Position numbers and translations under genes: made by a program
The notes under the pieces: generated by a model
Seen by the model: only the letters and a program-made list of their open reading frames with translations
What the model was told of the DNA's origin: nothing
Database searches by the model: none
From: Liolophura sinensis
Lineage: Eukaryota; Mollusca; Polyplacophora; Chitonida; Chitonidae
Reading direction: 5' to 3'
DNA: 64,000 nt
Assembly (NCBI RefSeq): GCF_032854445.1
Contig: NC_088307.1
Coordinates: forward strand, 8,570,017-8,634,016
Shown here: positions 79 to 58,140 of the stretch, in pieces
Layout of the letters: each line of letters starts with the position of its first letter
How positions within the stretch are numbered: position 1 is the first letter of the stretch

Positions 79-331
79 GGGGGCCTCCATGGCTCAGTTG
101 GTTAGCGCGCTACCACTGCCTAATGACCCAGGAGTCTCTCACCAATGTGGTCGCTGTGAGTTCAAGTCCAGCTCATTCTGGCTCCCTCTCCGGTCGTAAG
201 TGGGAAGGTCTGGCAGCAATCTGCGGATGGTCGTGGGTTTCCCCCGGGGCTCTGCCTGGTTTCCTCCCACTGTCGTATAAGTGAAATATTCTTGAGTACG
301 GCGTAAAACGATGTTCAAATAAATAAATAAA
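79..331 (+). mobile_element. SINE family A, full-length copy (tRNA-derived)
   Basis: Defines family A. The 5' head resembles a tRNA gene: A box TGGCTCAGTTGG at 90-101 and B box GTTCAAGTCC at 160-169. A conserved body follows (GGGAAGGTCTGGCAGCAA, then a GC-rich stretch), and the tail has ATTCTTGAGTACGGCGTAAA and AAATAAATAAATAAA. A perfect 12-bp target-site duplication, TTTTAGTTGTTT, flanks it at 67-78 and 332-343, which fixes both ends and implies LINE-assisted insertion. The layout fits molluscan V-SINEs such as RUDI; the exact family name is inference. Confidence 0.9.
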
Positions 332-494
332 TTTTAGTTGTTTATTTTTGATATGTTTGTTACTTTGTCATTCCTTTTTTCTTTTAACATAACAACCAAC
401 AACTGACCATGGATAGTTTGTAACTATTTTATTATACATCTCTGATCAGGAAAACCTCCCTCACCCATAAGCAGAGAATGCTATGTTATAGTGA

Positions 495-6023: not shown

Positions 6024-6029
6024 TTTATT
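6024..6029 (-). promoter_or_regulatory. Candidate polyadenylation signal AATAAA
   Basis: TTTATT on the plus strand reads AATAAA on the minus strand, about 315 bp past the stop codon of the UBAN-NZF gene. It is the first exact hexamer I see downstream of the stop. Other AATAAA words occur further down in this AT-rich DNA, so the site is tentative. Confidence 0.35.
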
Positions 6030-6342
6030 CCTTATGTTCTCTTGATTAGAATTCTTAAGAGTTAAGTGTAAAAAAAAAAAAAAAAAAAATGAAACTGGTA
6101 CATTTCTGAAACACTGACAGACTACAGGGCTACATGTATAGATCCATAATAAAAAGATAGAATCAGAAATATTTTCCAATAGTTTACAAAACCAATATGT
6201 GATTTGCTTTCAAAATATCTTATTTATAAGGCTCACTGCTACTTATTTTTCCACTGAAGCTGACCAGAAGTAGACCTACCCCTTCCTTTATGCATGAAAT
6301 TATGATGGAATAACGTAATGAAGTGATGAGACTTTCTAAGTT

Positions 6343-7992
6343 TTAAAATGAATGGGACTCTGGTGAACCTGTGTTCGTCACAGGAAGACCTGTGTCCCCT
6401 AATGTTAGCTCTGTCAGCCCTTCATCGGTACTAAGTCCTCTAGACACAAGACGACAGTTTCTCTCCAGACTCCTACGACACTCAGGAAAGTCCCTTGATG
6501 GCTTCATGTAGCGATCAGTGTCATTTATCACACCACATATCTCACAAACTGTCCTGTGACTGGAGTTCAGAAAAGTACAGGAAGGGCATGACCAGTCTCT
6601 AGTGACTGGCTGCTGTGTTGGAGTCCAGTGACTAGGTACAGGCAATTGCATGGGAAAGTACACTGGGGGCACCTGTAAATGTTCATTATAAGTATTCCCA
6701 GTATTTAACAAAGCCTGAGCAAGTTTTTGATCTTTAACCCTCAGCTCAGACTGTAACCCTTGTACAGTTTGTTGCAACGTGTTGTTTCTGGTCACAAATT
6801 CTGTCAGCCTGCTGTGTGCTAGCATCAGCTGACGTTTCAACACACGCACTTTCTCATCCAGATTCTGGAAATTCTCCTTGAGTTTGTTTCGTGAGGAGAC
6901 CACCCTGGCTCTGTCATTCCTCTCTTTTTCGAAGTCTTCCACGACTACAACCATCTGTTGTTGCAGAACACTTACCTCGGTTAGCAGATCCTGTACAACA
7001 CGATCGTGGCTATTTAAATCTTCTGAAGGTTTTTCATCACATGAGCTTTGCAAATCATGCAACTGTTGCTGCAATAGTCTTAATCTAGATTTTAACAGCT
7101 CAGCGTTCTGTTTTTCCAGAGCAAGTCGGCGTTCAAAATCCATGCATAACTCTTTTTCTCTTCTAAGTACCTTTTCACAATTTGAACAATGGGTACCCTT
7201 AAAGTCATTTTCAAAATGAGAGTTATCTCTTCCAACTTTATAATCATACGTTGTGATATCAGGATTGAAAAACTGACCTTTCGAACTCTGTCCAATCACA
7301 CTAAGTTTACCTCCATTAACAGTTACTTCCTTTTTCAATCCTTGACACACTTTCACAACAGCATGACTTTGGTCTCTTTTAATTTCCACATCAGGATAAG
7401 TTTGCTGAAATCTGGTCTTCAGTTCACGCCCGAGAAACTGCACTGTATGGGACAAACGTTCTATTTCACGAGACTGCTTTGCGTTCTGCTTTGCAAGCTG
7501 TTCCTTCTCCTGAAGTGCAGTCTTACATTCTCTCTCTACATCTCGAAATTTATCAACAATCTTTATCATTTCCTGCCCAAGACTTGGCGGCGCTGTACTT
7601 GCAGGAGACTTTGCAGGTGAGGCGCATCTTGGTTGCAACTGCATATCATAAGTCTCCTTTGTGAAACAATGGCCCCTGGGTTCAATTCGAAAAGGTGCTG
7701 GCAAGTTCTCTGAGAGAAACACACTGCTGTCTTCACTGAAAGCACTTATGTGGTGATGCTCCTCATCAGGTCTCAAACCTTTCTGTGAGTCCATATCACA
7801 GGCGCTCTTTGTGGGGAGATGTAGTCCAAGAGTGTTACCACAGCTGGATGTTTCTGGAGGGCCATCACATGCACTGTTACATCTCAGGAGTACAGAAGGC
7901 TCCAACACTTCTGTCTGGGATGTCAACCTCTTCTTGCTGGATGGAACACCAGCTGTACTCATGTAGCTCCCCTGACATCGCAAATCATCCAT
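6343..7992 (-). CDS. UBAN and NZF zinc-finger coiled-coil protein, ABIN/TNIP-like (549 aa)
   Basis: A single uninterrupted frame. I start at the ATG at 7992 (strong context: A at -3, G at +4); an in-frame TAA lies at 8017-8019 and the only earlier start-like codon is GTG. Residues 1-135 look disordered and Ser/Pro-rich. Coiled coils cover about 138-195, 273-317 and 330-430; a CxxC pair sits at Cys269 and Cys272. Residues about 335-390 contain a UBAN motif: Asp353-Phe354, then ERNDR at 357-361, closer to ABIN ERSDR than to the NEMO form. By family knowledge, UBANs bind linear ubiquitin and restrain or support NF-kB signalling in the cytoplasm. The acidic residue that follows the second conserved Arg in NEMO is Ala here. 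A C-terminal NZF spans about 466-487 (Trp467, Cys469, Cys472, Cys483, Cys486) with the Thr473-Phe474 pair typical of ubiquitin-binding NZFs. Vertebrate ABINs lack an NZF as far as I know. The exact ortholog is uncertain; a TAB-like or optineurin-like relative is the alternative. Confidence 0.88.
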   Translation of the reverse strand: MDDLRCQGSYMSTAGVPSSKKRLTSQTEVLEPSVLLRCNSACDGPPETSSCGNTLGLHLPTKSACDMDSQKGLRPDEEHHHISAFSEDSSVFLSENLPAPFRIEPRGHCFTKETYDMQLQPRCASPAKSPASTAPPSLGQEMIKIVDKFRDVERECKTALQEKEQLAKQNAKQSREIERLSHTVQFLGRELKTRFQQTYPDVEIKRDQSHAVVKVCQGLKKEVTVNGGKLSVIGQSSKGQFFNPDITTYDYKVGRDNSHFENDFKGTHCSNCEKVLRREKELCMDFERRLALEKQNAELLKSRLRLLQQQLHDLQSSCDEKPSEDLNSHDRVVQDLLTEVSVLQQQMVVVVEDFEKERNDRARVVSSRNKLKENFQNLDEKVRVLKRQLMLAHSRLTEFVTRNNTLQQTVQGLQSELRVKDQKLAQALLNTGNTYNEHLQVPPVYFPMQLPVPSHWTPTQQPVTRDWSCPSCTFLNSSHRTVCEICGVINDTDRYMKPSRDFPECRRSLERNCRLVSRGLSTDEGLTELTLGDTGLPVTNTGSPESHSF

Positions 7993-8042: not shown

Positions 8043-8165
8043 CTACCAGAGAAAAACAAAGATTTACCAAAACTGCTAATATTGATAAACTGTCTGGGCT
8101 TGCTTGAAGGAAAATAATTTTTCACTGATCGATACATACATCTGTACAGTGCACCAGAGACATAC
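8043..8165 (-). other. Predicted 5'UTR intron of the UBAN-NZF gene
   Basis: On the minus strand a good acceptor (pyrimidine-rich TTTGTTTTTCTCTGGTAG) ends at 8043, 50 bp before the ATG. A fair donor CTAG/GTATGT starts at 8165. A longer alternative uses the strong donor GG/GTAAGT near 8747. In either model the whole CDS is in the last exon. Confidence 0.4.
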
Positions 8166-13830: not shown

Positions 13831-14000
13831 GGCTTATAAGCTACCGGCACGGAAGGCCAAAGAAGAAAAAAATCGAAACAAAAACATGTTTGCCCAGTTT
13901 CTCGTCTTTCCTTGCCAAAATTACATGTAATATTTAAAACAAACACTTCCAAGCATATATACATATACTTAGAACTTTGATTCGTTCAAAATGTGTTACA

Positions 14001-16228
14001 GTTAATATAGCCTAAGTAATACAGCCTGAGTGGTGTTCACGGTTGAAGCACGCATGGAGGTAGAACAGATTCTATTTACCTCCATGAAGCACGGTTTAGT
14101 GAAGCCATAGTGAGAAATTCAGTGACGCCGACCATTTACAGTTAATATAGCCTAAGTAATATAGCCTGAGTGGTGTTCACGGTTGAAGCACGCATGGAGG
14201 TAGAACAGATTCTATTTACCTCCATGAAGCACGGTTTAGTGAAGCCATAGTGAGAAATTCAGTGACGCCGACCATTTACAGTTAATATAACCTAAGTAAT
14301 ATAGCCTAAGTGGTGTTCACGGTTGAAGCACGCATGGAGGTAGAACAGATTCTATTTACCTCCATGAAGCACGGTTTAGTGAAGCAATTAGTGAGAAATT
14401 CATTGACGCCGACCATTTACAGTTAATATAGCCTAAGTAATATAGCCTAAGTGGTGTTCACGGTGGAAGCACGCATGGAGGTAGAACAGATTCTATTTAC
14501 CTCCATGAAGCACGGTTTAGTGAAGCCATAGTGAGAAATTCAGTGACGCCGACCATTTACAGTTAATATAGCCTAAGTAATATAGCCTAAGTGGTGTTCA
14601 CGGTGGAAGCACGCATGGAGGTAGAACCGATTCTATTTACCTCCATGAAGCACGGTTTAGTGAAGCAATTAGTGAGAAATTCATTGACGCCGACCATTTA
14701 CAGTTAATATAGCCTAAGTAATATAGCCTAAGTGGTGTTCACGGTGGAAGCACGCATGGAGGTAGAACAGATTCTATTTACCTCCATGAAGCACGGTTTA
14801 GTGAAGCCATAGTGAGAAATTCAGTGACGCCGACCATTTACAGTTAATATAGCCTAAGTAATATAGCCTGAGTGGTGTTCACGGTTGAAGCACGCATGGA
14901 GGTAGAACCGATTCTATTTACCTCCATGAAGCACGGTTTAGTGAAGCCATAGTGAGAAATTCCGTGACGCCGACCATTTACAGTTAATATAGCCTAAGTA
15001 ATATAGCCTAAGTGGTGTTCACGGTTGAAGCACGCATGGAGGTAGAACAGATTCCATTTACCTCCATGAAGCACGGTTTAGTGAAGCAATTAGTGAGAAA
15101 TTCATTGACGCCGACCATTTACAGTTAATATAGCCTAAGTAATATAGCCTAAGTGGTGTTCACGGTGGAAGCACGCATGGAGGTAGAACAGATTCTATTT
15201 ACCTCCATGAAGCACGGTTTAGTGAAGCCATAGTGAGAAATTCAGTGACGCCGACCATTTACAGTTAATATAGCCTAAGTAATATAGCCTGAGTGGTGTT
15301 CACGGTTGAAGCACGCATGGAGGTAGAACCGATTCTATTTACCTCCATGAAACACGGTATAGTGAAGCCATAGTGAGAAATTCAGTGACGCCGACCATTT
15401 ACAGTTAATATAGCCTGAGTGGTGTTCACGGTTGAAGCACGCATGGAGGTAGAACAGATTCTATTTACCTCCATGAAGCACGGTTTAGTGAAGCCATAGT
15501 GAGAAATTCAGTGACGCCGACCATTTACAGTTAATATAGCCTAAGTAATATAGCCTGAGTGGTGTTCACGGTTGAAGCACGCATGGAGGTAGAACAGATT
15601 CCATTTACCTCCATGAAGCACGGTTTAGTGAAGCCATAGTGAGAAATTCAGTGACGCCGACCATTTACAGTTAATATAACCTAAGTAATATAGCCTAAGT
15701 GGTGTTCACGGTTGAAGCACGCATGGAGGTAGAACAGATTCCATATACCTCCATGAAACACGGTTTAGTGAAGCCATCGTGAGAAATTCAGTGACGCCGA
15801 CCATTTACAGTTAATATAACCTAAGTAATATAGCCTAAGTGGTGTTCACGGTTGAAGCACGCATGGAGGTAGAACAGATTCTATTTACCTCCATGAAGCA
15901 CGGTTTAGTGAAGCCATAGTGAGAAATTCAGTGACGCCGACCATTTACAGTTAATATAGCCTAAGTAATATAGCCTGAGTGGTGTTCACGGTTGAAGCAC
16001 GCATGGAGGTAGAACCGATTCTATTTACCTCCATGAAGCACGGTTTAGTGAAGCCATAGTGAGAAATTCAGTGACGCCGACCATTTACAGTTAATATAGC
16101 CTAAGTAATATAGCCTAAGTGGTGTTCACGGTTGAAGCACGCATGGAGGTAGAACAGATTCTATATACCTCCATGAAACACGGTTTAGTGAAGCCATCGT
16201 GAGAAATTCAGTGACGCCGACCATTTAC
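14001..16228. repeat. Satellite array, 140-bp monomer, 16 copies
   Basis: Monomers begin (GTTAATATAGCC) at 14001, 14141, 14281, 14422, 14562, 14703, 14843, 14983, 15124, 15264, 15404, 15530, 15670, 15810, 15950 and 16090. Two subtypes alternate: 140 bp (AGCCATAGTGAG...CAGTGACG) and 141 bp (AGCAATTAGTGAG...CATTGACG). The monomer at 15404 lacks 14 bp. Each monomer holds a perfect 10-bp inverted repeat, CATGGAGGTA and TACCTCCATG, around a 14-bp loop. Copies are nearly identical, so the array is young or actively homogenised. Confidence 0.98.
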
Positions 16229-20165: not shown

Positions 20166-21090
20166 TGTGGAAAGATGGATGTCATGGATGGGTGGTTAAG
20201 ATAGTAGTCATGGATGGGTGGTTAAGATACTAGTCATGGATGAGTGGAAAGATACTAGTCATGGACGAGTGGTAAAGATGCTAGTCATGGACGAGTGGTA
20301 AAGATGCTAGTCATGGACGAGTGGTAAAGACACTAGTCATGGACGAGTGGTAAAGATGCTAGTCATGGATGAGTGGTAAAGATGCTAGTCATGGATGAGT
20401 GGTAAAGATGCTAGTCATGAACGAGTGGTAAAGATACTAGTCATGGACGAGTGGTAAAGATGCTAGTCATGGACGAGTGGTAAAGATGCTAGTCATGGAC
20501 GAGTGGTAAAGACACTGGTCATGGACGAGTGGTAAAGACACTAGTCATGGAAGAGTGGTAAAAATGCTAGTCATGGACGAGTGGTAAAAATGCTAGTCAT
20601 GGACGAGTGGTAAAGACACTGGTCATGGACGAGTGGTAAAGACACTGGTCATGGACGAGTGGTAAAGACACTGGTCATGGAAGAGTGGTAAAGACACTAC
20701 TCATGGATGAGCGGTAAAGACACTAGTGATGGACGAGTGGTAAAGATGCTAGTGATGGACGAGTGGTAAAGACACTAGTCATGGACGAGTGGTAAAGACA
20801 CTAGTCATGGACGAGTGGTAAAGACACTAGTCATGGAAGAGTGGTAAAAATGCTAGTGATGGACGATTGGTAAAGATGCTAGTGATGGACGAGTGGTAAA
20901 GACACTGGTCATGGACGAGTGGTAAAGATGCTAGTCATGGATGAGTGGTAAAGATGCTAGTGATGGACGATTGGTAAAGATGCTAGTCATGGACGAGTGG
21001 TAAAGACACTGGTCATGGACGAGTGGTAAAGACACAAGTGATGGACGAGTGGTAAAGATGCTAGTCATGGATGAGTGGTGAAGATGCTGA
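20166..21090. repeat. Minisatellite, 26-bp unit, about 35 copies
   Basis: Unit TAGTCATGGACGAGTGGTAA plus AGATGC or AGACAC. The ATGC/ACAC variants and the TAGTC/TGGTC/TAGTG variants are intermixed. The left end is more diverged (GGGTGGTTAAG). Confidence 0.97.
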
Positions 21091-52299: not shown

Positions 52300-54128
52300 T
52301 AAAAAGTTTGTGCATCATTTCTGATTCATCAGTTACAGTGCCTGCCGGTGGTTTAATTGGTGTGGCGAATAGTTTGTGCATCATTTCTGATTCATCAGTT
52401 ACAGTGAGTGCCAGTGGTTTAATTGGTGTGGCGAAAAGTTTGTGCATCATGTCTGATTCATAAGTTACAGTGAGTGCCAGAGGTTTAATTGGTGTGGCGA
52501 AAAGTTTGTGCATCATTTCTGATTTATCAGTTACAGTGAGTGCCAGTGGTTTAATTGGTGTGGCAAAAAGTTTGTGCATCATTTCTGATTCATCAGTTAC
52601 AGTGAGTGCCAGTGGTTTAATTGGTGTGGCTAAAAGTTTGTGCTTCATTTCTGATTCATCAGTTACAGTGAGTGCCAGAGGTTTAATTGGTGTGGCGAAA
52701 AGTTTGTGCATCATTTCTGATTCATCAGTTACAGTGAGTGCCGGTGGTTTAATTGGTGTGCCGAAAAGTTTGTGCATCATGTCTGATTTATCAGTTACAG
52801 TGAGTGCCAGTGGTTTAATTGGTGTGGCTAAAAGTTTGTGCATCATTTCTGATTCATCAGTTACAGTGAGTGCCAGTGGTTTAATTGGTGTGGCTAAAAG
52901 TTTGTGCATCATTTCTGATTCATCAGTTACAGTGCCTGCCGGTGGTTTAATTGGTGTGGTGAAAAGTTTGTGCATCATGTCTGATTCATCAGTTACAGTG
53001 CCTGCCGGTGGTTTAATTGGTGTGGTGAAAAGTTTGTGCATCATGTCTGATTCATCAGTTACAGTGAGTGCCAGAGGTTTAATTGGTGTGGCGAAAAGTT
53101 TGTGCATCATTTCTGATTCATCAGTTACAGTGAGTGCCGGTGGTTTAATTGGTGTGCCTAAAAGTTTGTGCATCATGTCTGATTTATCAGTTACAGTGAG
53201 TGCCAGAGGTTTAATTGGTCTGGCTAAAAGTTTGTGCATCATTTCTGATTCATCAGTTACAGTGAGTGCCAGTGGTTTAATTGGTGTGGCTAAAAGTTTG
53301 TGCGTCATTTCTGATTCATCAGTTACAGTGCCTGCCGGTGGTTTAATTGGTGTGGTGAAAAGTTTGTGCATCATTTCTGATTCATCAGTTACAGTGAGTG
53401 CCAGAGGTTTAATTGGTGTGGCGAAAAGTTTGTGCATCATTTCTGATTCATCAGTTACAGTGAGTGCCGGTGGTTTAATTGGTGTGCCTAAAAGTTTGTG
53501 CATCATGTCTGATTTATCAGTTACAGTGAGTGCCAGAGGTTTAATTGGTCTGGCTAAAAGTTTGTGCATCATTTCTGATTCATCAGTTACAGTGAGTGCC
53601 AGTGGTTTAATTGGTGTGGCTAAAAGTTTGTGCGTCATTTCTGATTCATCAGTTACAGTGCCTGCCGGTGGTTTAATTGGTGTGGTGAAAAGTTTGTGCA
53701 TCATTTCTGATTCATCAGTTACAGTGAGTGCCAGAGGTTTAATTGGTGTGGCGAAAAGTTTGTGCATCATTTCTGATTCATCAGTTACAGTGAGTGCCGG
53801 TGGTTTAATTGGTGTGCCGAAAAGTTTGTGCATCATGTCTGATTTATCAGTTACAGTGAGTGCCAGTGGTTTAATTGGTGTGGCTAAAAGTTTGTGCATC
53901 ATTTCTGATTCATCAGTTACAGTGAGTGCCAGTGGTTTAATTGGTGTGGCTAAAAGTTTGTGCATCATTTCTGATTCATCAGTTACAGTGCCTGCCGGTG
54001 GTTTAATTGGTGTGGTGAAAAGTTTGTGCATCATTTCTGATTCATCAGTTACAGTGAGTGCTTATGGTTTAATTGGTGTGGTGAAAAGTTTGTGCATCAT
54101 GTCTGATTCATCAGTTACAGTGCATGCT
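52300..54128. repeat. Minisatellite, 66-bp unit, about 27-28 copies, with 330-bp higher-order blocks
   Basis: Unit: AAAAGTTTGTGCATCATTTC, TGATTCATCAGTTACAGTGA, GTGCCAGTGGTTTAATTGGT, GTGGCG. Variant units recur in fixed order in blocks of five: the CCAGAGG unit preceding GTGTGGCG is found at 53071, 53401 and 53731, exactly 330 bp apart. 66 is divisible by three, so both strands stay open for more than 550 codons (plus strand GLIGVAKSLCIISDSSVTV; minus strand HKLFATPIKPLALTVTDES). Confidence 0.98.
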
Positions 54129-56399: not shown

Positions 56400-57002
56400 A
56401 TGCCTTTTAGAACAGATATCAGATAGTGATGGGTGAACCAATATACTTGTATATCACAGACAATATTTTACATGTAAGTCAGTGTAAAAAAATGAGTTCA
56501 CCTATGGGCCCAATGGAAAGAAGGGGAATTCCCCATAAGATTTTCAGAAATGTGTCAAATCTGTCTGCTCTTGACGTGGTAGTCAACCAGGAAGTGACAA
56601 ATTATGACTCTCAGACAGCAACTATATATTATCCGTGTGATTTATTAACACCATGACCTTAATTGTTAAGGTTTTGACTTCCTGAATTTTGAAATTTTAA
56701 TTCTTTTAAGCTTTTTAGGTTACATGTACATTCATTGCAAGGCATTAGTTTGTTGTTGGGAGTTTTGTAAACACCCGGCAGTATCCTAAAACCTCCAAAA
56801 TTTACCAACCAGTCTCATTTTCTTTTTCTTTGTTTATACAACGCTCTTTTTGTATAAGGTCATGCACAAGATTATTCATACAGTTACTTAAATGCATCAG
56901 AGATCTGGAGAATATAGCCGTGCAGAATATGTTCAATGCTAGTGGGGTTGGGGTGTTAAAAATCTAAAAAAATTATAAAGATACTTGTCTTTCATTTCAT
57001 GG
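56400..57002 (+). other. EVI5 intron 3, no feature seen
   Basis: No exon or repeat supported; see the rejected RRGIPHKIFR match at about 56516. Confidence 0.45.
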
Positions 57003-58140
57003 TATATTTTGTAATCCCATGAGGTGGTGCAGGGCCCAGGTCGTGTGGATTAGTCGTGGGAGGCAAGGTGGCATATTTTTGTAATCCCTTGAGGTGGTTT
57101 AGGGCCGGGGTCGTGTGGATTAGCAGTGGGAGGGCAGGTGGCATATTTTGTAATCCCTTGGGGTGGTTTAGGGCCGGGGTCATGTGGATTAGCAGTGGGA
57201 GGGAAGGTGGCATATTTTGTAATCCTGTGAGGTGGTTTAGGCCCGGGGTCGTGTGGATTAGCTGTGGGAGGGAAGGTGGCATATTTTGTAATCCCCTGAG
57301 GTGGTGTAGGGCCGGGGTCGTGTGGATTAGCAGTGGGAGGGAAGGTGGCATATTTTGTAATCCCTTGAGGTGGTTTAGGGCCGGGGTCGTGTGGATTAGC
57401 AGTTGGAGGGAAGGTGGCATATTTTGTAATCCCCTGAGGTGGTGCAGGGCTGGGGTCGTGTGGATTAGCAGTGGGAGGGAAGGTGGCATATTTTGTAATC
57501 CCTTGAGGTGGTTTAGGGCCGGGGTCGTGTGGATTAGCAGTGGGAGGGAAGGTGGCATATTTTGTAATCCCCTGAGGTGGTTTAGGGCTGGGGTTGTGTG
57601 GATTAGCAGGGGGAGGGAAGGTGGCATATTTTGTAATCCCCTGAGGTGGTTTAGGGCCGGGGTCGTGTGGATTAGCAGTGGGAGGGAAGGTGGCATATTT
57701 TGTAATCCCCTGAGGTGGTTTAGGGCCGGGGTCATGTGGATTAGCAGTGGGAGGGAAGGTGGCATATTTTGTAATCCCCTGAGGTGGTGCAGGGCCGGGG
57801 TTGTGTGGATTAGCAGGGGGAGGGAAGGTGGCATATTTTGTAATCCCCTGAGGTGGTTTAGGGCCGGGGTCGTGTGGATTAGCAGTGGGAGGGAAGGTGG
57901 CATATTTTGTAATCCCCTGAGGTGGTTTAGGGCCGGGGTCGTGTGGATTAGCAGTGGGAGGGAAGGTGGCATATTTTGTAATCCCTTGAGGTGGTTTAGG
58001 GCTGGGGTCGTGTGGATTAGCAGTGGGAGGGAAGGTGGCATAGTTTGTAATCCCCTGAGGTGGTGCAGGGCCGGGGTCATGTGGATTAGCAGTGGGAGGG
58101 AAGCTGGCATATTTTGTAATCCCTTGAGGTGGTGCAGAGC
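57003..58140. repeat. Minisatellite, 69-bp unit, about 16.5 copies
   Basis: Unit: GCATATTTTGTAATCCCCTG, AGGTGGTTTAGGGCCGGGGT, CGTGTGGATTAGCAGTGGGA, GGGAAGGTG. Much richer in G than its surroundings on the plus strand. 69 is divisible by three and both strands remain open for more than 360 codons. Confidence 0.98.

What the first reader, a model, noticed from the sequence alone, without database searches (positions are those of the whole stretch)
6343..7992. ABIN-like UBAN protein that also ends in a ubiquitin-binding NZF finger
One polypeptide seems to carry a UBAN (linear-ubiquitin reader class) and, about 110 residues later, an NZF with the Thr-Phe pair used for ubiquitin contact (TAB2/Npl4 class, often K63-linked chains). 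Mammalian ABINs have the UBAN without an NZF; NEMO and optineurin end in a different finger. If both bind, the protein could bridge M1- and K63-linked chains, a combination mammals spread over separate proteins. The UBAN also has Ala where NEMO has a conserved acidic residue.
Basis: partly seen in the sequence, partly recalled or inferred. Interest (0 to 1): 0.75.

Follow-up and report, generated by a model that had tools for sequence, protein, structure and literature searches.

The report
Molluscan ABIN-like protein with NZF finger
A mollusc genome carries an intact one-exon gene, and a many-exon relative of it, that join a linear-ubiquitin reader coil to a second, probably ubiquitin-binding, zinc finger of another kind than the one its better-known relatives carry.

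Summary
Window 7992-6343 (minus strand) is one 549-residue open frame with a UBAN-like coiled coil (core D353-A362) and a C-terminal NZF finger (W467-C486). The fusion is not peculiar to this frame: the same genome has a second gene (contig C1; 14 exons inferred from sequence, no transcript) with the order UBAN, proline-rich linker, NZF. The two are each other's closest relatives among those compared, by finger and by coil. The window gene is the diverged member without introns. The genome also has NEMO and an ABIN-2-like gene with the usual C2HC finger, HOIP and OTULIN, and a molluscan haemocyanin. The Ala at the NEMO E320 position is real and shared with the C1 gene. Likely role: a dimeric two-grip polyubiquitin reader that competes with NEMO. 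Binding is inferred, not shown. New variant of a known kind.

The parts
6343..7992 (-). single-exon coding sequence, 549 aa (P0001)
7399..7581 (-). first coiled coil, residues 138-198
   Evidence: helix in the AlphaFold model of P0001, block means of pLDDT 51-74
6679..7185 (-). long coiled coil, residues 270-438 (short break at 321-325), containing the UBAN
   Evidence: homologous to C1 residues about 405-580
6823..6993 (-). UBAN, residues 334-390
   Evidence: TNIP1 UBAN 4.5e-5; Pfam CC2-LZ
6907..6936 (-). UBAN core D353-F-E-K-E-R-N-D-R-A362; Ala at the NEMO E320 position (NEMO number recalled)
6598..6678 (-). proline-rich linker, residues 439-465
   Evidence: sequence; pLDDT under 50
6532..6600 (-). 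NZF finger, residues 465-487; T473, F474, I485, Cys 469/472/483/486
8043..8044 (-). possible 3' splice site (AG) of a 5'-UTR intron
   Evidence: pyrimidine tract then TAG in the sequence; inference only
6024..6029 (-). AATAAA, possible poly(A) signal 313 bases past the stop codon
   Evidence: consensus only

Best explanation
This is a functional, single-coding-exon molluscan gene for a UBAN-NZF protein, the diverged paralogue without introns of a 14-exon ABIN (TNIP1-like) gene with the same architecture. Shown from sequence: one open frame, two coils, UBAN core, NZF, common descent with the C1 gene. Inferred: the protein dimerises through its coil; the UBAN clamps a linear (M1) junction, or more weakly a K63 chain; the flexibly tethered NZF grips the Ile44 patch of another ubiquitin, so that the dimer holds a long or mixed chain by avidity. 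It would then compete with NEMO on ubiquitinated receptor complexes and damp IKK/NF-kB signalling without recruiting A20.
For: ORF and domains. The residues that in optineurin contact the M1 junction (D474, E478, R479, R482; PMC4999505, passage) are kept as D353, E357, R358, R361. The NZF keeps the T-F-x(10)-hydrophobic ubiquitin signature (PMC5135002, PMC4386640, passages). Relative: C1 gene, all 13 introns GT-AG and in phase (junctions chosen by hand), UBAN 1.9e-8 to TNIP1 and NZF 5.4e-8. Collinear match 272-491 to 405-662, 27% identity. Coil scores: window-C1 189, window-C6 97, C1-C6 127; the window-C1 score is above all of 500 heptad-preserving shuffles in each of two runs (maxima 81 and 103). 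The fingers are reciprocal best (97 against next best 88 and 87) among 26 of the 52 other NZF/RanBP places. A genome-wide search with the C1 half returns this ORF as best non-self match for both domains. Two UBAN/NZF pairs, this ORF and C1, lie within 50 kb among 7 x 53 places. M1 writer and eraser are present: HOIP UBA, OTULIN, plus NEMO. A 549-codon frame that stays open at 27% identity implies selection (inference).
Against: No transcript, binding or phenotype data. Beside the core the UBAN has V350 and V351 where TNIP1 has Phe and Glu, and A362 where TNIP1 has Glu. Change of TNIP1 E470 lowers affinity (PMC7697625, passage); counted from D472 that residue falls on V351, but the passage equates it with the optineurin phosphosite, which by the motif would be E352, kept here, so the weight of this is unclear. 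Pfam UBAN score below cut-off for both proteins (31.9 and 32.2 of 35.3 bits). For the UBAN exon alone tblastn ranks C6 slightly above C1 (33.9 against 32.7 bits). The whole-protein search of the genome with the window protein found no relative at E 0.001. No match to the ABIN N-x-x-W block, and no AHD1 recognised.
Confidence: 0.6

Rival explanations
1. The UBAN has decayed and the NZF does the ubiquitin work: after losing its introns and the ABIN N-terminal block, the protein became an NZF reader on a coiled-coil scaffold with little M1 selectivity.
For: V350, V351 and A362 replace TNIP1 residues. Hydrophobic third NZF contact (Ile) favours strong, unselective binding as argued for the Npl4 finger (PMC4386640, passage).
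Against: The four residues that touch the M1 junction in optineurin are intact (PMC4999505, passage), and A362 is shared with the C1 protein, whose UBAN matches TNIP1 better.
Confidence: 0.25
2. The NZF is a protein- or RNA-binding RanBP-type finger, for example a NEMO-binding finger like HOIP NZF1, and not a second ubiquitin grip.
For: HOIP NZF1 binds the NEMO coil (PMC9294000, passages). Ran- and RNA-binding fingers rank among the fold matches.
Against: T473-F474-I485 is the ubiquitin signature. The HOIP residues that contact NEMO after the last Cys (E374-R375-P376-R377) are not present; the residues after C486 are G-V-I-N.
Confidence: 0.08
3. The gene is a processed pseudogene or an unexpressed copy.
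For: No introns in a region where the C1 gene has seven; no expression data.
Against: Frame of 549 codons intact at 27% identity to the relative, zinc ligands and UBAN core kept. No second match in the genome at E 0.001, so no family of dead copies was seen.
Confidence: 0.04
4. The UBAN call is a generic coiled-coil match and only the NZF is real.
For: Unrelated coiled-coil models score similarly on the same coil; Pfam score below cut-off.
Against: CC2-LZ gives 7 matches in the 609-Mb genome, from 8 scored candidates, and this one is third and over the cut-off there. Coil homology to C1 exceeds all shuffles. Motif and TNIP1 alignment.
Confidence: 0.03

Closest known systems
ABIN-1 / TNIP1 (and ABIN-3)
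   Same: UBAN closest by sequence among PDB chains; coil followed by a proline/tyrosine-rich tail (mammalian tail recalled)
   Different: Mammalian ABIN-1/3 have no NZF (recalled). The window protein lacks the N-x-x-W block and a recognisable AHD1, the A20-binding domain (PMC8286839, passage)
NEMO, optineurin, ABIN-2: UBAN plus C2HC (NOA) finger (the ABIN-2 finger is recalled)
   Same: Same plan, UBAN then a C-terminal zinc finger. NEMO's UBAN-ZF pair is cited as two ubiquitin-binding domains in one receptor (PMC7226360, passage; Laplantine 2009 seen as a reference title only)
   Different: Their finger is C2HC; here it is a four-Cys NZF. In this genome C2HC-type fingers lie downstream of the UBAN exons of NEMO and of an ABIN-2-like gene (gene not fully assembled). 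PMC4999505 labels optineurin's finger 'Npl4-type', so the wording UBAN+NZF is not unprecedented, although PMC12097756 calls it CCHC (passages)
HOIL-1L NZF / HOIP NZF1 / TAB2 NZF / Npl4 NZF
   Same: NZF sequence and fold, T-F-hydrophobic or T-F-Gln site; R480 at the HOIL-1L R208 position and E484 at the TAB2 E685 position
   Different: These proteins carry no UBAN (recalled). No confident HOIL-1L-type tail helix here (pLDDT 53-58 past the finger); no TAB2 Gln686 or acidic N-terminal cluster

Membership tests
UBAN proteins | D-F-x-x-E-R-x-x-R core in a coiled coil | tested here: met
   D353-R361; coil; TNIP1 UBAN 4.5e-5
UBAN proteins | profile score over the curated cut-off | tested here: inconclusive
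   31.9 of 35.3 bits as whole protein; 37.2 bits, over the cut-off, in the genome scan
UBAN proteins | binds M1-linked ubiquitin as a coiled-coil dimer | not testable with these tools
   needs protein; M1-junction residues kept, three other TNIP1 residues changed
ABIN (TNIP) | AHD1, A20 binding | tested here: inconclusive
   no curated profile on hand; only looked for by eye against a recalled motif
ABIN (TNIP) | N-x-x-W coiled block upstream of the UBAN (block recalled from human ABINs) | tested here: not met
   score 27, 284 of 300 shuffles reach it; the C1 protein scores 53, 2 of 300 reach it. A second C6 block further upstream: window 57, 39 of 300; C1 80, 5 of 300
NZF ubiquitin-binding finger | W-x-C-x2-C ... 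C-x2-C with T-F/Y and a hydrophobic residue 11 after F | tested here: met
   W467, C469, C472, T473, F474, C483, I485, C486
NZF ubiquitin-binding finger | binds ubiquitin | not testable with these tools
   needs protein
TAB2-type K63-selective NZF | Gln at the third distal contact, Glu at the E685 position, acidic N-terminal cluster | tested here: not met
   Ile485 and no acidic cluster; E484 present (PMC6220233, PMC4386640, passages)
HOIL-1L-type M1 NZF | helical tail after the finger | tested here: inconclusive
   pLDDT 53-58 past the finger
NEMO/OPTN/ABIN-2 with C2HC finger | C-terminal C2HC finger | tested here: not met
   finger is C4 NZF

The most novel reading that the evidence does not exclude
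In molluscs, and perhaps more widely, the ABIN-1/3 branch is built as a two-headed reader, UBAN plus NZF, and mammals lost the finger. The window gene is a stripped copy without the ABIN-type N-terminal block that holds mixed M1/K63 chains as a pure competitor. Mixed-chain reading in one molecule would then be an old solution that mammals later split among proteins.
Probability: 0.25. Interest if true: 0.65.

Novelty: new variant of a known kind. Interest (0 to 1): 0.45.

Why it matters
UBAN proteins set how strongly ubiquitin chains drive NF-kB. A natural protein that joins a UBAN to an NZF would test directly whether one receptor can read mixed M1/K63 chains. Because a multi-exon relative has the same plan, the finger change looks like a property of a gene lineage, which makes its origin datable once other molluscs are compared.

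Tried and rejected
Splice-artefact reading: rejected, since the frame is continuous and a relative with separate exons joins in phase into the same order (model without transcripts, junctions chosen by hand). Retrocopy with a poly(A) tail: no support; the run of A near 6072 reads as poly-T on the gene's strand, so origin by retroposition is only inferred from the missing introns. HOIP-type NEMO binding by the NZF: contact residues absent. Whole-protein AlphaFold run without an alignment: coils only, mean pLDDT 50.4, NZF region not confident, so the NZF was modelled apart with 12 other NZF/RanBP stretches of the genome. NCBIfam gave coiled-coil matches and weak noise. Literature: nine searches, of which I saw the listed rows only (for example 20 of 39 papers, 15 of 531); one search returned 15 of 8,682 papers, none listed with a TNIP term, and told nothing; some searches were about NZF specificity, ABIN domains and hybrid chains. 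No listed title or abstract start describes an ABIN with an NZF. Of molluscan papers, passages of PMC8195618 name TNIP1 without its domains, and passages of PMC9334734 name NEMO, HOIP, HOIL1 and 19 genes with RanBP2-type fingers in Aplysia, without TNIP or ABIN; one of those 19 could be such a gene. Spread among other molluscs or annelids was not tested: the genome collections on hand are prokaryotic, viral or plasmid, and the own genome has no relatives here.

Full report
What is there. The minus strand of the window from 7992 to 6343 encodes 549 residues in one frame, ATG to TAA. The frame is 557 codons from stop to stop; 100 simulated 64-kb windows with order-3 base statistics never exceeded 247. 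The protein has an uncharacterised N-terminus, a coil at 138-198, a long coil at 270-438, a proline-rich linker and a zinc finger at 465-487.

UBAN. Pfam CC2-LZ matches residues 290-385 at 1.8e-7 but below its cut-off. PDB UBANs align, TNIP1 first at 4.5e-5. Coils match many things: an archaeal SMC-related model scores 2.8e-7 here. The case therefore rests on the motif D353-F-E-K-E-R-N-D-R361, on rarity (7 CC2-LZ matches in 609 Mb from 8 scored candidates, this one third and over the cut-off in that scan) and on the relative below. By alignment, D353, E357, R358 and R361 correspond to optineurin D474, E478, R479 and R482, which contact the linear junction (PMC4999505, passages). Against full function, V350, V351 and A362 replace Phe, Glu and Glu of TNIP1. 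Change of TNIP1 E470 lowers polyubiquitin affinity (PMC7697625, passage); counted from D472 it falls on V351, but the passage equates it with the optineurin phosphosite, which by the motif is the neighbouring E352, kept here, so this point is uncertain. NEMO numbering (E320) is recalled.

NZF. The finger has all four cysteines, Trp, and T473-F474 with I485 eleven residues after F474. It scores just over the Pfam cut-off. Modelled with 12 NZF/RanBP stretches of the same genome, 24 of 61 residues reach pLDDT 90. It superposes on HOIP NZF1, TAB2 NZF and TRABID NZF1 at 0.4-0.5 A over 25-26 columns; no Foldseek E-value is below 0.001 for so small a domain, and fingers that bind Ran or RNA match as well. 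The third contact being Ile matches HOIP NZF1 (PMC9294000, passage). TAB2 has Gln there, and changing it to Met broadens its linkage range (PMC4386640, PMC6220233, passages). A K63 preference is thus possible (E484) but not indicated.

The relative. A scan of the window's own genome for NZFs found 53 places (17 over cut-off), and for CC2-LZ 7 places (3 over cut-off). Two pairs lie within 50 kb: the window ORF and a pair on contig C1 2.9 kb apart on the same strand; about 0.001 same-strand pairs within 20 kb are expected by chance. From L010 and L011 I built a 14-exon model, C1:13691661-13702011, in which all 13 introns are GT-AG and in phase, giving 707 residues (no transcript; junctions chosen by hand). 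It hits TNIP1 UBAN at 1.9e-8 and the NZF profile at 5.4e-8; its CC2-LZ score, 32.2 bits, is also below the cut-off. Window residues 272-491 align to 405-662 at 27% identity. For the coil alone (window 271-445) the scores are 189 with C1, 97 with four joined stretches of the C6 ABIN-2-like gene, and 127 between C1 and C6; no heptad-preserving shuffle of 500 reached 189 in either run (maxima 81, 103). At the level of single exons the picture is less clear: tblastn gives the C6 UBAN exon 33.9 bits and the C1 UBAN exon 32.7, while direct alignment of the UBAN stretch favours C1, 91 against 73. NEMO was not assembled for this test. The fingers are reciprocal best (97; next best 88 and 87) among the 26 of 52 other NZF places compared; the 26 left out are all below the cut-off with E of 0.127 or more. 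A genome-wide search with the C1 half returns the window ORF as best non-self match for finger (8.1e-4) and coil (0.0024); the reverse search with the whole window protein found nothing but itself at E 0.001. Both genes have Ala at the NEMO E320 position, whereas NEMO and the ABIN-2-like gene of this genome have Glu. Seven C1 introns fall inside the homologous stretch (from the exon lengths), so the window gene has lost introns, perhaps by retroposition (inference).

Setting. The genome has eight haemocyanin domains in a row on C8, a molluscan feature (family meaning recalled). It has a NEMO-like UBAN exon with a C2HC finger downstream, an ABIN-2-like gene whose last frame ends in a C2HC finger, HOIP, OTULIN, A20-type fingers, and fingers that resemble those of TAB2, HOIL-1L and HOIP. 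The gene labels NEMO, ABIN-2, TAB2, HOIL-1L are my reading of motifs. So the M1 system in which such a protein would work is present. The ABIN N-x-x-W block is found in C1 (2 of 300 shuffles reach its score) and not in the window protein (284 of 300).

How it would work. ABINs damp NF-kB by competing for polyubiquitin and by recruiting A20 through AHD1 (PMC8286839, passage). UBANs prefer M1 over K63, and pairing of UBAN with a zinc finger is known from NEMO (PMC7226360, passages). The likeliest reading is a dimer with two UBAN sites and two tethered NZFs that holds long or mixed chains by avidity and blocks NEMO, without A20. Everything after the domain calls is inference. Whether the finger reads K63, M1 or any ubiquitin is open.

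Novelty. UBAN+NZF in an ABIN-like protein does not appear in the rows listed by nine literature searches (named under Tried and rejected) of an open-access library. Most subscription papers are not held, only part of each listing was seen, and animal protein databases could not be searched, so unnamed or automatically annotated examples may well exist. It is a variant of a known plan, with an NZF in place of the C2HC finger.

Checking round. 

Noticed in passing
window 52302-54122 and 57000-58133: Minisatellite arrays (66 bp x 27.6 and 69 bp x 16.4) with periods divisible by three create long open frames on both strands; they look like coding sequence but most likely are not.
   Followed up: partly
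window 13996-16228 and 20167-21088: Further long tandem arrays (140 bp x 16; 26 bp x 35.5).
   Followed up: no
G000 C8:37880506-37891931: Eight haemocyanin beta-sandwich domains in a row, each in a 429-529 residue open frame, consistent with a molluscan eight-unit haemocyanin.
   Followed up: no
L008, C6 gene (minus strand): The ABIN-2-like gene ends in a C2HC finger followed directly by a stop, so finger types are split among the UBAN genes of this genome.
   Followed up: partly
window about 7131-7194 (residues 267-287, minus strand): A small Cys cluster, H-C-S-N-C then a Cys further on, sits at the start of the long coil; no known meaning.
   Followed up: no
L010 40-963 (minus strand): Retrotransposon-like frames lie upstream of the C1 gene.
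   Followed up: no
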